The notes: generated by a model from the sequence alone, not told the origin. DNA of 42,737 bases from an uncultured bacterium (GCA_903930225.1 CAIYXV010000100.1:1-42737); one strand, 5' to 3'. Positions 14,963 to 41,821 are shown, numbered from the stretch's first letter. A program made the numbers and translations.

Positions 14963-14993
14963 TATATATCGAAAAAAACCGGCGAAAAATTCA
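14963..14993 (-). promoter_or_regulatory. Conserved two-block upstream element P1
   Basis: TGAATTTT-TCGCCGGTTTTTTT-CGATATATA on the minus strand, upstream of ATG at 14911. Confidence 0.65.
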
Positions 14994-15003
14994 TGCGCCC
15001 CCA

Positions 15004-18000
15004 TTAAAAATCACTAAGGATATTAAGCATTTTTGTTATCTTATCCTCGTTGGAATAACCGGTATTGTTCTTTATTTCCAGGAGAGCGCTCGCGATCGAT
15101 TTAAAGTCGTCGTCTTTGTTGTCCTCGTAAAAGCGGTCAATGGTCCGGAACGTGTATCCAAGGATTATCTCATTGAGACCGCCCTGTTGGATTGATTGTA
15201 GCGTTTTCTTGTAGGTGCGGTAAGCTAAGGTGAAGATGACTTGTTTTTCGCCCTTTTCCCTGGTTTGCTCGGCCAAAGCGAGATAATTTTCGCTCAAACC
15301 GCGCAAAGCGTTCACATTGTTGGTATTGAATTGGAGCGCCTTTTTGTAGTTTTTGATGGCTTCTTCCGCGGCTTGCTGGTTGCTGCCGCGCCCCCACCAC
15401 ATGATATCTCCCCAGCTGGCCCAGGCATCCGCCTGCCGGAAAGGGAATTTGCCGAAAATAATTCTGACCAGATCTTTGTTCTCTGGTTTTAAGAAGTATT
15501 GAACGATTGGGTCATTGGTCTCTTTGACCTGCTCACCCAGCAGGGCGGCAAACCTTTGGTCCAGCAGGGTGTTGGTTTCGTAAAGATACTCCGCTTCTCT
15601 CTTTAGATTCCTTTTTTCATCCGGCGTGAGTTTAGGGGAGGCATCAATATTATTATTAATTGTTTTAAGATCCACCGTATAACTGCTTTCAATTATACCG
15701 GCTACTATAAGCCTGCTTTCCAGGCTTTGTCTTTCCTTGTATAACATAAGCACCATTTTCATAACCGATTGCATAGAGAGGTCGACTGCGTGTTCGCGAT
15801 TCGAAAGGTAAACATTGTGCACTTCGGCCAGTGCGGCCAGACCTAAATCCAGTCGTCTTTGTTTTTCCTGCGCCGTGCTGAACTCAGAAAATTCCGACCA
15901 CCCAAAATAAAGATCGGCTTGATAAATCTTGCCGTTGACATAGTGAACGTTTCTCGGGTCGGCTGAAGGATTGGCCATGGCCAGCCGTACGGCTGCGCGG
16001 TAGATCAGCAGTAAATCGGACAGATTTTCCTCCGCAACAACATCATATTCCATTTCTCTTGCAATTCTGAGGATTGCCTCCTTGGCGTTCTTATCGGATT
16101 TTATTCCGGCGTAGTCTGCGGTGCTTAAATTATCAAGCGTGTACAGAACGATCCGGTTCAAAAGCAAGGCATGGTTGAAATCATGATCCGCTTCCTTTTG
16201 GAATATCTGATTTTGCGCCGGTACATCTAATAGCGATTTACGCAATTTTTCGTATTCCTTTTTTATATTGTTTAGCTTGGGAAAATAAGTGTTGATTCCG
16301 ATGATAGACCTCAGGGCCTGATAAATCAAAAGCGGATCCTGTTCGCCGTTAAGCTCGTCATTAATAACTTCCATCAAAATCTTGTTTGCGTTTTTTCCCG
16401 TCTCAAGCGCCCGATCCAGGTCATCTTCGAATAGGCCACGACCCGATGGCAAAAGCCTGATGTTTGCACGCCCGATTTCCTTATTGCCCAAAATCTTCTC
16501 TATTTCTTTATGGGCATAGACCATCATTTTAAGGTAGATCTGCGCTTCGGCGAGCTTTAGCTTTGGCCTCAGCTCCTTCGGAACGTCCTTTTTGAACTTG
16601 TAGATAAGATCAAGCGTCCGCTTGAGGTCCCCTGCGCTCGCGGGGGTTTGATAATTGATCGCGATCCGCGGTATCAAGATCGCGGCCTCAAACTCGAATT
16701 GGACCGTCGGGATCAGGTTCCCTCCTTTTACCCTGACAGTGGGAACGCCGCTCTCGGACACCGATTTCATGATCTCGACTAACGCGTCGGAGAAGAGCCG
16801 GCTTCCCGGAGAGGCCTTGCCGGTCAGTTTATCCCAGGCGCCGCCGGACAATTCGGAGCGGTGGCGGTCATATTCCTCAAGGAAAGCTTCCCCGAGCTTG
16901 AACGCCTTCACGTGGTTGCCGCCGTCGTTGAACTCCCGCATGATCGCCACCATCATCGCCATGCGTGTGCCATCGTCGAACCGGTTCGAGTCGAGCGTCG
17001 ACTGGAGCAGGTCTCCGACCACGATCTCGCCGAAGTTCAAGGTCTTGAGGATGCCCTCGAGATTGAAAATGGTCATCATTACCAGCTGCGGGTTGTTGCT
17101 GAACTTGGCGAGCAGCAGGGTGCGGTAAAATGCTTCCGCCGCCGCTTGGTACCGGCCGATGTTCCTTAAGGCGGACGCGTAATTATAATTTACTTCAGCG
17201 TCATCGGGATAATATTCAAGCTGGCGTTTTGCGTTCCAGAACATTTCTTTTGCGGTTGCGGGAAACTGTGGTTTCGTGTGCGCGCCGTCGTTTGCGGCGA
17301 GATCCAAAAAATAGGTCAGGGGGGCGTCGATCAGGTCTGATCCGCTGATGCTCCGGGGGGAGGGCAGTAATTCGGGTGTTTCGATGATCGAAATCGTTTT
17401 CGGCAGGGAGCTATGATAGGGAGCGACCTTCACTTTTGAAGTCCGGTTCTCCTGCGCGATCGCGCCGGTCAGAGTAAGAACGGAGATGGTAGACATGTAA
17501 TATCTGGGAAGCGGCTTTTTGTCGCCGGCCCTCTGCACCGGATCGTGGATCCCGCTTACCTCGGATCCGTTCTTCTGCTTCTTACTTTTCGGTGTTTTCA
17601 TGGTCTGTCCGGCCACGTATTCATTGAGCCCGCCTTCAAAGTCGGCGGTCATTTTGGGATCGTTCAATCCCAGCGAGGCCATCAGATAAACGTCGAGCGG
17701 AATGATGTTCCGGTCGGAATCGACCCTGACGCTTGCCGCTTTTTTCCCTGCGGCCAGCTGCGCCAATAAATTCCTGGCCTGGCAGACGGTGCCGGGATCG
17801 TCCGAAGCGAGGATCGCTTCTCCCAGTTCCTTCGGGCCGCGGATGCCGTCGTATTTTTCGGTAAAGCCCAATCTGGCCTCGCCGAACTCGATGCGGGTTG
17901 AGATGCGTCCGCCGGCGTCCACTATCACTTCCAGCTGGTCGGGGACAAAAGGCGTAACGTGAGCGGCCTCGATCTTCAAGAGGACGTCCTCGAAGCATTC

Positions 18001-40315: not shown

Positions 40316-41785
40316 TTACTTATCTTTTGACAGCTTGCTTATAATCAGGTCGCCGCTGGGGCTTCTAAACAGGATGGCGCCGGCCGCGTCAATCGTGCTC
40401 TCAATGACCTTGCCGGGGATCGATCCGCCAGCGATAATCCCATTGCGCAATTTCAGTTTGGAGATAAAAGTGGGCTTTTGCGGACTGCCCGGCAGGACTA
40501 CGACATTTTCCAGATGCACTTTCTCTTCTAGGGTCACGTTGTCGCCGACCACGCAGTTTTTAAGATGAACAAATCTTTTGATCCGGCAGTTTCGGCCGAT
40601 GATAGTACCGATCGGATCGAACTTCGTGTCGGATTCCTGAGGCATTTTAATTCTTGCCTGATCATCGATCTCGGTGTCCTGACCGACCAGCCCCCATGGT
40701 TGTTTGGTCCAGACCTTTCCAAAATCCATCGGTTCTCCGAACTCGCCCATCAGCCCCCGCATGTTGGCCAGATACAGGAGAAGCGGGGTCCCGACATCGC
40801 ACCAGAAAACGGGCAGTCCGTTCCTTTCCTCGGGCAGGAAATATGCGTTGAACCGGGAACTGCGCATGGCCGCTTTTATTTTTTGAAAGGGGATATTATG
40901 CGCGCTATCGTAAACCGTGGAGAAGCTGGCCATGGCCGGGAAGATGTGGAAGCCGAAATCGGAAAAATTGTGCTTTATGTGAGGACTGATGTTATCGATC
41001 CAGAAGGCGCCGTTGATGGCATAAAAACCGGTGCTTATAAAATTAGTTATCCGTTCGTCCCTTTCCTTCTGCTCGCTTTGCTCGCAGAAGCCGGTGATCT
41101 GCTTAACCTGCCCGATGTTTTCGAGGTAATAACGATCGAGCATTTCCTCGTATTCCGACGGGGAGATGTCACGAGCCTTATAATCCAGTCCGTCCGGCAC
41201 CACGGTCGCGAACGAGCGCTCCTCCCATTCGTTGCTGTGCATTCCGATCCGGGTGATCCCCACGGTCCCTCCCGCGTCGCTTTGCAGGTGGTTGTCAAGC
41301 ATCCTCATCAGTGTGTGCTGTTCCGGATCATCGCTCCCTGCGTTATTTGGGTTATCGCTGCCCATTATCATAAAGGTCAGGTTTTCCAGATGCGATTCAT
41401 TATGGCCTAGCTTAAAGGCGACGCTCTTGATGAAATCGTTAACTGACCGGGCGGTGCCCATGGGGCGGCTCTCTATCCACATCTTTACTTTCTGGTCCGG
41501 GTTTTTTGGCCGGTAGATCTGCTGTTCGATCTGCGAGGCCTGCTGTGGGGTGGTCAGGACAAAAATGTCGCGGAGGCCCATTTGTTCGTAAGCCCGGACC
41601 GAATAATCAATGGCGGAGCCGGTAAGGACAAGCACATTGGGTTTACAGCAGGCGGTCGCGTTCAAATCGGCGTCAGCGATCCCCTCGAGCCTTTTGGCGT
41701 TGCCGCCGGCTAGGATCAGTCCGTAAACCTGTCCCTTTGCAATCGCGGTTCTAGCTAAACTTATGTTGTTCATAGTGATAGGCAT
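40316..41785 (-). CDS. Sugar-phosphate nucleotidyltransferase with C-terminal beta-helix-like domain; start may be ATG at 41773
   Basis: GLILAGGNAKRLEGIADADLNATACCKPNVLV (NTP-transferase signature), FWCDVGTPLLLYLANM, GTIIGRNCRIKRFVHLKNCVVGDNVTLEEKVHLENVVVLPG (hexapeptide-like). Confidence 0.8.
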   Translation of the reverse strand: MPITMNNISLARTAIAKGQVYGLILAGGNAKRLEGIADADLNATACCKPNVLVLTGSAIDYSVRAYEQMGLRDIFVLTTPQQASQIEQQIYRPKNPDQKVKMWIESRPMGTARSVNDFIKSVAFKLGHNESHLENLTFMIMGSDNPNNAGSDDPEQHTLMRMLDNHLQSDAGGTVGITRIGMHSNEWEERSFATVVPDGLDYKARDISPSEYEEMLDRYYLENIGQVKQITGFCEQSEQKERDERITNFISTGFYAINGAFWIDNISPHIKHNFSDFGFHIFPAMASFSTVYDSAHNIPFQKIKAAMRSSRFNAYFLPEERNGLPVFWCDVGTPLLLYLANMRGLMGEFGEPMDFGKVWTKQPWGLVGQDTEIDDQARIKMPQESDTKFDPIGTIIGRNCRIKRFVHLKNCVVGDNVTLEEKVHLENVVVLPGSPQKPTFISKLKLRNGIIAGGSIPGKVIESTIDAAGAILFRSPSGDLIISKLSKDK

Positions 41786-41790
41786 CCTGA

Positions 41791-41821
41791 TAATTATCTG
41801 TTTGAGGGGCTCAAAATTTCA
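41791..41821 (-). promoter_or_regulatory. Conserved two-block upstream element P8 (most divergent second block)
   Basis: TGAAATTT-TGAGCCCCTCAAAC-AGATAATTA, immediately upstream of the nucleotidyltransferase gene. Confidence 0.45.

What the first reader, a model, noticed from the sequence alone, without database searches (positions are those of the whole stretch)
14963..41821. Eight fixed-spacing copies of TGAAWTYN-N14-MGATAWN, one upstream of each transcription unit of the locus
Minus-strand copies at 14963-14993, 19280-19310, 26671-26701, 28114-28144, 35871-35901, 38808-38838, 40251-40281 and 41791-41821 are all exactly 31 nt: TGAA(A/T)T + 2 nt, 14 variable nt, then (C/A)GATA(T/A). Six have the core CGATAT. 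Each sits just upstream of a start codon, none lies between the tightly packed genes from 35848 down to 28197, and the neighbouring ABC-transporter/glmS unit instead has a TTGACT-N17-TATAAT promoter. Two short boxes at constant spacing suggest an alternative-sigma promoter. TGAAAT-N16-CGATAT is close to ECF promoters (sigmaW-type TGAAAC-N16-CGTA), and the CGAT second box also fits sigma28/SigD-type (TAAA-N15-GCCGATAW). No sigma factor gene is visible in the window. This would make the whole locus one dedicated regulon.
Basis: partly seen in the sequence, partly recalled or inferred. Interest (0 to 1): 0.88.

Follow-up and report, generated by a model that had tools for sequence, protein, structure and literature searches.

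The report
Class-wide alternative-sigma regulon in WOR-1 bacteria
The eight repeated two-box sequences are very probably promoters of a gene-control switch that the bacterium uses at about 50 places in its genome and that its whole uncultured class (WOR-1/Saganbacteria) shares; it is probably run by an unusual shortened relative of the flagellar sigma factor and also drives a previously undescribed family of small RNAs.

Summary
All eight copies are present (chance 0.04), fully intergenic, 8-70 nt before start codons. The genome, a Candidatus Saganbacteria/WOR-1 (Margulisiibacteriota) MAG, holds 51 perfect copies against 0 for the reversed pattern; all 31 other class genomes examined are enriched (15-210 against 0-5). 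Bases outside the search pattern (A29, A31, T34, R35, G36) point to a start site 7 nt after the -10 box. Independent support: RNA models built only from transcribed sequence of small RNAs behind some copies found 27 hits in class genomes, 23 preceded by the promoter (0-1 mismatch). The box pair resembles sigma28 (TAAAGTTT-n11-GCCGATAA) without its extended -10 GC. Best candidate sigma: a 194-aa FliA/WhiG-derived protein without domain 3, matched in every genome searched, co-encoded with a conserved ~70-aa protein (candidate regulator). The flagellar FliA is less likely: one motif copy in 231 kb around fliA of 12 genomes (about 8.5 expected). Targets include rpoN, GGDEF proteins, Ser/Thr kinases, FHA and SLH proteins, glycan enzymes and small RNAs. 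The sigma assignment is inferred; nothing was measured.

The parts
14959..14993 (-). promoter copy 1 (TGAATT-N16-CGATAT, predicted start 14959) before the 1753-aa TPR protein gene 9650-14911
19276..19310 (-). promoter copy 2 (predicted start 19276) before the 1402-aa GH8-like, Tat-signal-like protein gene 15004-19212
26667..26701 (-). promoter copy 3 (predicted start 26667) before the 2431-aa unknown protein gene 19326-26621
28110..28144 (-). promoter copy 4 (predicted start 28110) before the SLOG/LDcluster4 gene 26769-28094
35867..35901 (-). promoter copy 5 (predicted start 35867) before the four-gene train 35848 to 28197
38804..38838 (-). promoter copy 6 (predicted start 38804) before the 940-aa glycosyltransferase-like gene 35960-38782
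40247..40281 (-). promoter copy 7 (CGATAA core, predicted start 40247) before the SLOG/LDcluster4 gene 38840-40216
41787..41821 (-). promoter copy 8 (AGATAA core, weakest copy; predicted start 41787) before the NTP-transferase gene 40316-41785; the ATG at 41773 is then the likelier start
9650..14911 (-). target gene, 1753-aa TPR protein; its leader holds a near-complement of the small RNA's unpaired segment
15004..19212 (-). target gene, 1402 aa, GH8-like domain
19326..26621 (-). target gene, 2431 aa, no Pfam match
26769..28094 (-). target gene, SLOG/LDcluster4 protein
28197..35848 (-). target transcription unit: 1075-aa paralogue of the protein of 35960-38782, guanylate-kinase-domain protein, PfkB kinase, LDcluster4 protein
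35960..38782 (-). target gene, 940 aa, weak Glyco_transf_4 match below Pfam's cut-off
38840..40216 (-). target gene, LDcluster4 protein; no full-length homologue in 59 relatives searched
40316..41785 (-). target gene, nucleotidyltransferase with hexapeptide repeats

Best explanation
The eight copies are promoters (TGAAAT-N16-CGATAW-ATA-N2-T-purine+1-G) of a genome-wide alternative-sigma regulon conserved in the class WOR-1/Saganbacteria. Shown by sequence: the motif, its enrichment, its position, conserved bases at the predicted start, and its coupling to a small-RNA family. Inferred: RNA polymerase carrying a 194-aa sigma factor of FliA/WhiG ancestry that lacks domain 3 recognises it. Domain 2 would read the core CGATA; with no region 3.0 the extended -10 GC of sigma28 is not read; domain 4 would read GAAAT. 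The sigma gene appears to be transcribed by the housekeeping polymerase and is translationally coupled to a conserved ~70-aa protein that could hold the sigma inactive or tune it. When the sigma is active it would switch on roughly 45 transcription units together (surface and glycan proteins, kinase/FHA/GGDEF signalling proteins, RpoN and small RNAs), so it looks like a lifestyle switch and not flagellar assembly.
For: Eight window copies against 0.04 expected, all intergenic. Genome: 51 perfect copies, reversed-pattern control 0. Class: 31/31 further genomes enriched, 15-210 copies against 0-5 for the control. Unsearched columns conserved downstream: A29, A31, T34, R35, G36, with the same trend in G012. 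RNA models R1/R2, which contain no promoter, found 27 matches in 17 of 32 class genomes; 23 are preceded by the motif with 0-1 mismatch, and in most of these the sequence at motif position 35 is the AGA/AGG that begins the RNA. Short sigma: matched in all 60 genomes of the search, 60-79% identical in full-length class copies; TIGR02479 FliA_WhiG is its best family; it aligns to solved FliA mainly in domain-2 and domain-4 stretches; AlphaFold gives helices 5-98 and 132-193 with residues 101-135 below pLDDT 50; nearest solved folds are WhiG and sigma28 (modest TM-scores). Counterparts of E. coli FliA R74, D81 and R84 are invariant in the family. Coupled ~70-aa protein. Flagellar neighbourhoods: 1 motif in 231 kb of 12 genomes, about 8.5 expected.
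Against: No transcription or binding data. The short sigma and FliA are both present across the class, so presence/absence cannot separate them. The short sigma gene carries no copy of the motif, so autoregulation gives no link. Its score for FliA_WhiG (85.6) is far below the curated cut-off (189.6). The ~70-aa protein matches no anti-sigma family. Most target genes are lineage-specific, so few orthologous promoters could be compared; the rpoN promoter is conserved only in some relatives.
Confidence: 0.75

Rival explanations
1. The flagellar-cluster FliA (249 aa, contig C43) is the cognate sigma and has taken over a global programme, as proposed for the Bdellovibrio attack phase.
For: FliA is conserved in the class; the -10 box CGATA is sigma28-like (PMC2859248); a precedent for a global FliA regulon with small RNAs exists (PMC3627812).
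Against: The motif is absent from the own flagellar cluster (best matrix score 7.5, lowest true site 12) and depleted around fliA in 12 relatives (1 against about 8.5 expected). No flagellin is found in the genome. The extended -10 GC of sigma28 promoters is not conserved in the motif. One genome without a detected FliA (G025, 79% complete) keeps 56 sites.
Confidence: 0.15
2. An ECF sigma (sigmaW-like) reads the motif.
For: The -35 TGAAAT resembles TGAAAC of sigmaW promoters, and the spacing is similar; one ECF gene is in the genome.
Against: Its own operon (anti-sigma-like, Spy-like, TolC-like genes) carries TTGAGA-N17-TATAAT and no motif. The CGATA core is sigma28-like. The number of targets is large for a local ECF/anti-sigma/efflux unit. 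Whether this ECF is conserved in the class was not searched.
Confidence: 0.05
3. The motif is an operator of a DNA-binding regulator and not a promoter.
For: No start site has been measured.
Against: Fixed 16-nt spacing, asymmetric boxes, conserved bases at the predicted start, and small RNAs that begin 34 nt after the start of the motif, with no room for another promoter between.
Confidence: 0.03

Closest known systems
sigma28 (FliA/SigD) promoters, consensus TAAAGTTT-n11-GCCGATAA (PMC2859248)
   Same: core CGATA at the same distance from an AAA-containing -35 box (GAAA to CGAT 21 nt here, TAAA to CGAT 21 nt there)
   Different: -35 begins TGAAAT; no extended -10 GC; targets are not flagellar
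Bdellovibrio bacteriovorus attack-phase FliA regulon, TTAAG-N16-CCGATA (PMC3627812)
   Same: a sigma28-type motif genome-wide upstream of surface, signalling and unknown genes and of small RNAs
   Different: there the full-length FliA is proposed and flagellar genes are included; here flagellar neighbourhoods are depleted and a shortened sigma is the candidate
WhiG of Streptomyces with its c-di-GMP-dependent anti-sigma RsiG (PDB 6pfv, 6pfj, 7lq4)
   Same: nearest fold match of the short sigma; a non-flagellar sigma of the same family
   Different: the model of the short sigma has no folded domain 3, and the coupled small protein here matches no known anti-sigma by sequence
ECF sigma factors
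   Same: two-domain (sigma2-sigma4) architecture
   Different: the family models place the protein with FliA/WhiG; the promoter has a CGATA -10

Membership tests
sigma28 promoter | core -10 CGATAA | tested here: met
   CGATAW in 43 of 51 sites, AGATAW in 8; the search pattern itself required this core
sigma28 promoter | extended -10 GC before CGATA | tested here: not met
   positions 21-22 carry no GC preference (A20 C6 G12 T13; A25 C11 G5 T10)
sigma28 promoter | -35 TAAA | tested here: not met
   GAAA at the equivalent place in 47 of 51 sites; required by the search pattern, but TAAA versions were not found near the flagellar genes either
FliA/WhiG sigma family (TIGR02479) | score above the curated cut-off | tested here: not met
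   short sigma 85.6 against 189.6; it is nevertheless its best family
FliA/WhiG sigma family (TIGR02479) | domain 3 between domains 2 and 4 | tested here: not met
   194 aa, alignment gap over this part, residues 101-135 without confident structure
ECF sigma family | best match to ECF family models | tested here: not met
   FliA_WhiG outranks the ECF models for the short sigma
alternative-sigma promoter class (generic) | two boxes at fixed spacing upstream of many genes with a purine start 6-9 nt after the -10 | tested here: met
   start base predicted, not measured
alternative-sigma promoter class (generic) | mapped transcription start and dependence on the sigma | not testable with these tools
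   uncultured organism, no RNA data held
FlgM or other known anti-sigma | match of the coupled ~70-aa protein to an anti-sigma family | tested here: not met
   no such match in Pfam or PDB sequences
known RNA family (Rfam 15) | small RNA above a gathering score | tested here: not met
   only a tRNA was found in nine loci

The most novel reading that the evidence does not exclude
A sigma28/WhiG-derived sigma that has lost domain 3, controlled by a new kind of small coupled regulator, runs a class-wide, non-flagellar lifestyle programme in WOR-1 bacteria, including RpoN in some lineages and a new family of small RNAs whose conserved anti-Shine-Dalgarno-like segment (CCUCUUAUUUGGU) represses or tunes messages, perhaps of the same programme.
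Probability: 0.4. Interest if true: 0.75.

Novelty: new variant of a known kind. Interest (0 to 1): 0.64.

Why it matters
It offers a first sequence-level promoter map for an uncultured lineage related to Cyanobacteria; no earlier description of such a regulon was found in the library searched. It gives a promoter rule with a predicted start base usable in any WOR-1 genome, ties many genes of unknown function to one programme, and names a specific sigma/partner pair and small-RNA family that can be tested in vitro without culturing the organism. It also gives a natural test of whether a sigma28 derivative without domain 3 works without the extended -10.

Tried and rejected
A locus-specific regulon: rejected, 43 further copies elsewhere. 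Self-regulation of the short sigma: no motif in the held sequence up to 250 nt upstream of 30 orthologues; a sigmaA-like TTGCGT-N17-TAGAAT with a GTG start of the coupled small gene a few bases later in the own genome. FliA as reader: no motif in the flagellar cluster, depleted in relatives. Flagellin as a target: none in the genome. Canonical sigma28 promoters in the own flagellar cluster: no convincing hit. Sigma54 sites (RpoN is a target): nothing convincing in held loci. The coupled small protein as FlgM: no match. Window LDcluster4 genes for promoter comparison across relatives: no full-length homologues in 59 relatives, so not usable. rpoN orthologues: motif perfect in the own genome, 1 mismatch in G002 and G013, a spacing of 17 in G001, 2 mismatches in G009, not elsewhere. 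FliA frames with one stop in G009, G012, G013 and G014: open-frame lengths suggest the stop lies at the C-terminal end; not followed. Small-RNA targets: one near-complement at a ribosome-binding site, in the window, but not significant given the other chance hits.

Full report
OBSERVATION. The pattern TGAAWT-N16-MGATAW gives exactly eight hits in the window against a shuffle mean of 0.04, one more at one mismatch, and chance level at two. All eight are wholly non-coding in a stretch that is 97% coding, 8-70 nt before a start codon in the same direction. The housekeeping-type promoter of the neighbouring unit is also as described.

GENOME. The window is a whole contig of a 1.69-Mb, 137-contig, 99% complete genome. 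This genome holds 51 perfect copies of the pattern; the pattern read backwards has none. With one mismatch allowed there are 134 against 23 for the control. Most of the 51 stand shortly before a gene start in the same direction; a few lie in coding sequence or stand before no clear gene, and four stand before small RNAs. So the motif is not private to this locus.

ORGANISM AND CLASS. Contigs of the relatives carry the names Candidatus Saganbacteria, candidate division WOR-1 and Margulisiibacteriota. In all 31 other class genomes searched the motif is enriched, 15-210 copies against 0-5 for the control (both strands summed); outside the class the counts vary.

PROMOTER ANATOMY. In the 51 sites, columns that were not part of the search are also conserved: A29, T30, A31, T34, purine 35, G36, and 30 sites of the relative G012 show the same trend. 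This places the likely start base 7 nt after the second box. Aligned on CGATA, the -35 reads GAAA where the sigma28 consensus TAAAGTTT-n11-GCCGATAA (PMC2859248) has TAAA, and the GC of the extended -10 is missing.

SMALL RNAs. Four copies in the own genome (L006, L011, L021, L047) are followed not by a gene but by about 65 nt with a 5' hairpin, an unpaired CCUCUUAUUUG(G) segment and, in three of them, a terminator directly behind it. A covariance model made from three of these transcripts, containing none of the promoter, found matches in four other genomes, each preceded by the motif. A second model from seven sequences found 27 matches in 17 of 32 class genomes; 23 are preceded by the motif with 0 or 1 mismatch, and in most of these the RNA begins AGA or AGG at motif position 35. 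Seven of the 27 are the sequences the second model was built from; of the other 20, sixteen are preceded by the motif. This is the strongest independent evidence for promoter and start site, since sequence downstream of the motif predicted the motif. The second model's 5' hairpin is poorly aligned, so the structure of that part is uncertain beyond the single folds. The loci checked match no Rfam family there.

WHICH SIGMA. The own genome has four sigma70-family genes: RpoD, one ECF, FliA inside a flagellar cluster, and a 194-aa protein. The last has FliA/WhiG as best family but far below its cut-off, aligns to solved FliA only in domains 2 and 4, and is modelled as two helical domains with a poorly structured link. 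It is matched in all 60 genomes of the search, 60-79% identical in full-length class copies and lower outside; 345 homologous proteins were found, and the names seen are only 'sigma-70 family' or hypothetical. By alignment, E. coli FliA R74, D81 and R84 correspond to invariant residues. Loss of region 3 fits the loss of the extended -10; that region 3 reads the extended -10 of sigma28 is from memory (the paper, Koo 2009, is not held), so this step is inference. FliA is disfavoured because flagellar neighbourhoods avoid the motif: one copy in 231 kb of 12 genomes, about 8.5 expected from their genome averages, and none in the own cluster. The ECF gene is disfavoured by its local operon and promoter. 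The sigma assignment remains an inference.

PARTNER. In most of the class loci examined the short sigma gene follows, with start and stop overlapping or nearly so, a conserved protein of about 70 aa with the pattern PPxGIxPILRxxWxFA..A..F.(K/R)EL...F. It matches no Pfam or PDB family convincingly. It is a candidate anti-sigma by position only.

REGULON. In the own genome: RpoN, two GGDEF proteins, GAF, two protein kinases, FHA, two Com-like zinc ribbons, an SLH-containing protein, GH5 and GH48-like proteins, radical SAM, a DUF294-type nucleotidyltransferase family, the window genes and the small RNAs. Shared with the distant class member G012: the Com-like protein, the SLH protein and one unknown; G012 also has GT5 and UDPGP enzymes and a cluster of nine sites within about 51 kb, which recalls the window locus. 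Most other targets compared are lineage-specific. The window locus is thus one block of lineage-specific cargo under a conserved switch. The closest described parallel is the attack-phase FliA regulon of Bdellovibrio (PMC3627812), which likewise covers surface proteins, unknown genes and small RNAs.

LIMITS. No RNA or binding data; operons were read from ORFs, not from a gene caller; target lists are for perfect matches only, and a few of the 51 are in coding sequence and probably accidental (L012, L022). Spacer counts on fetched loci are biased because many of those loci were chosen by the 16-nt pattern.

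Noticed in passing
L006, L011, L021, L047 (own genome); L188, L193, L197-L203, L207, L210 and others in relatives: A family of about 50-90 nt RNAs, each behind the motif, with an unpaired CCUCUUAUUUGGU segment in the closer relatives and a terminator that often has a GCCUGU loop; no Rfam match.
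   Followed up: yes
L004:557-769 and upstream of the short sigma gene in most class loci examined (L080-L106): Conserved ~70-aa protein translationally coupled to the short sigma gene; no known family.
   Followed up: partly
L023 (site upstream of rpoN, 146-1474): The gene for sigma54 carries the motif, which suggests a sigma cascade; similar sites stand before rpoN in a few relatives only.
   Followed up: partly
window 28145-28175, minus strand: A decayed promoter copy (TGAAATCCAGCCCCAACAATATATA) lies just upstream of intact copy 4 and resembles copy 3, perhaps a trace of duplication along with the LDcluster4 genes (55% identical pair).
   Followed up: no
window about 14920-14945, minus strand (leader of gene 9650-14911): ACCATATAAAAGG at the ribosome-binding site is an 11/13 complement of the small RNA's unpaired segment; not significant alone.
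   Followed up: partly
G000 contig C43 (L003, L048, L049): Flagellar basal-body gene cluster in a genome with no detectable flagellin.
   Followed up: partly
window 26769-28094, 28197-29546, 38840-40216: Three paralogous SLOG/LDcluster4 proteins of about 450 aa; the one searched has no full-length homologue in 59 relatives.
   Followed up: partly
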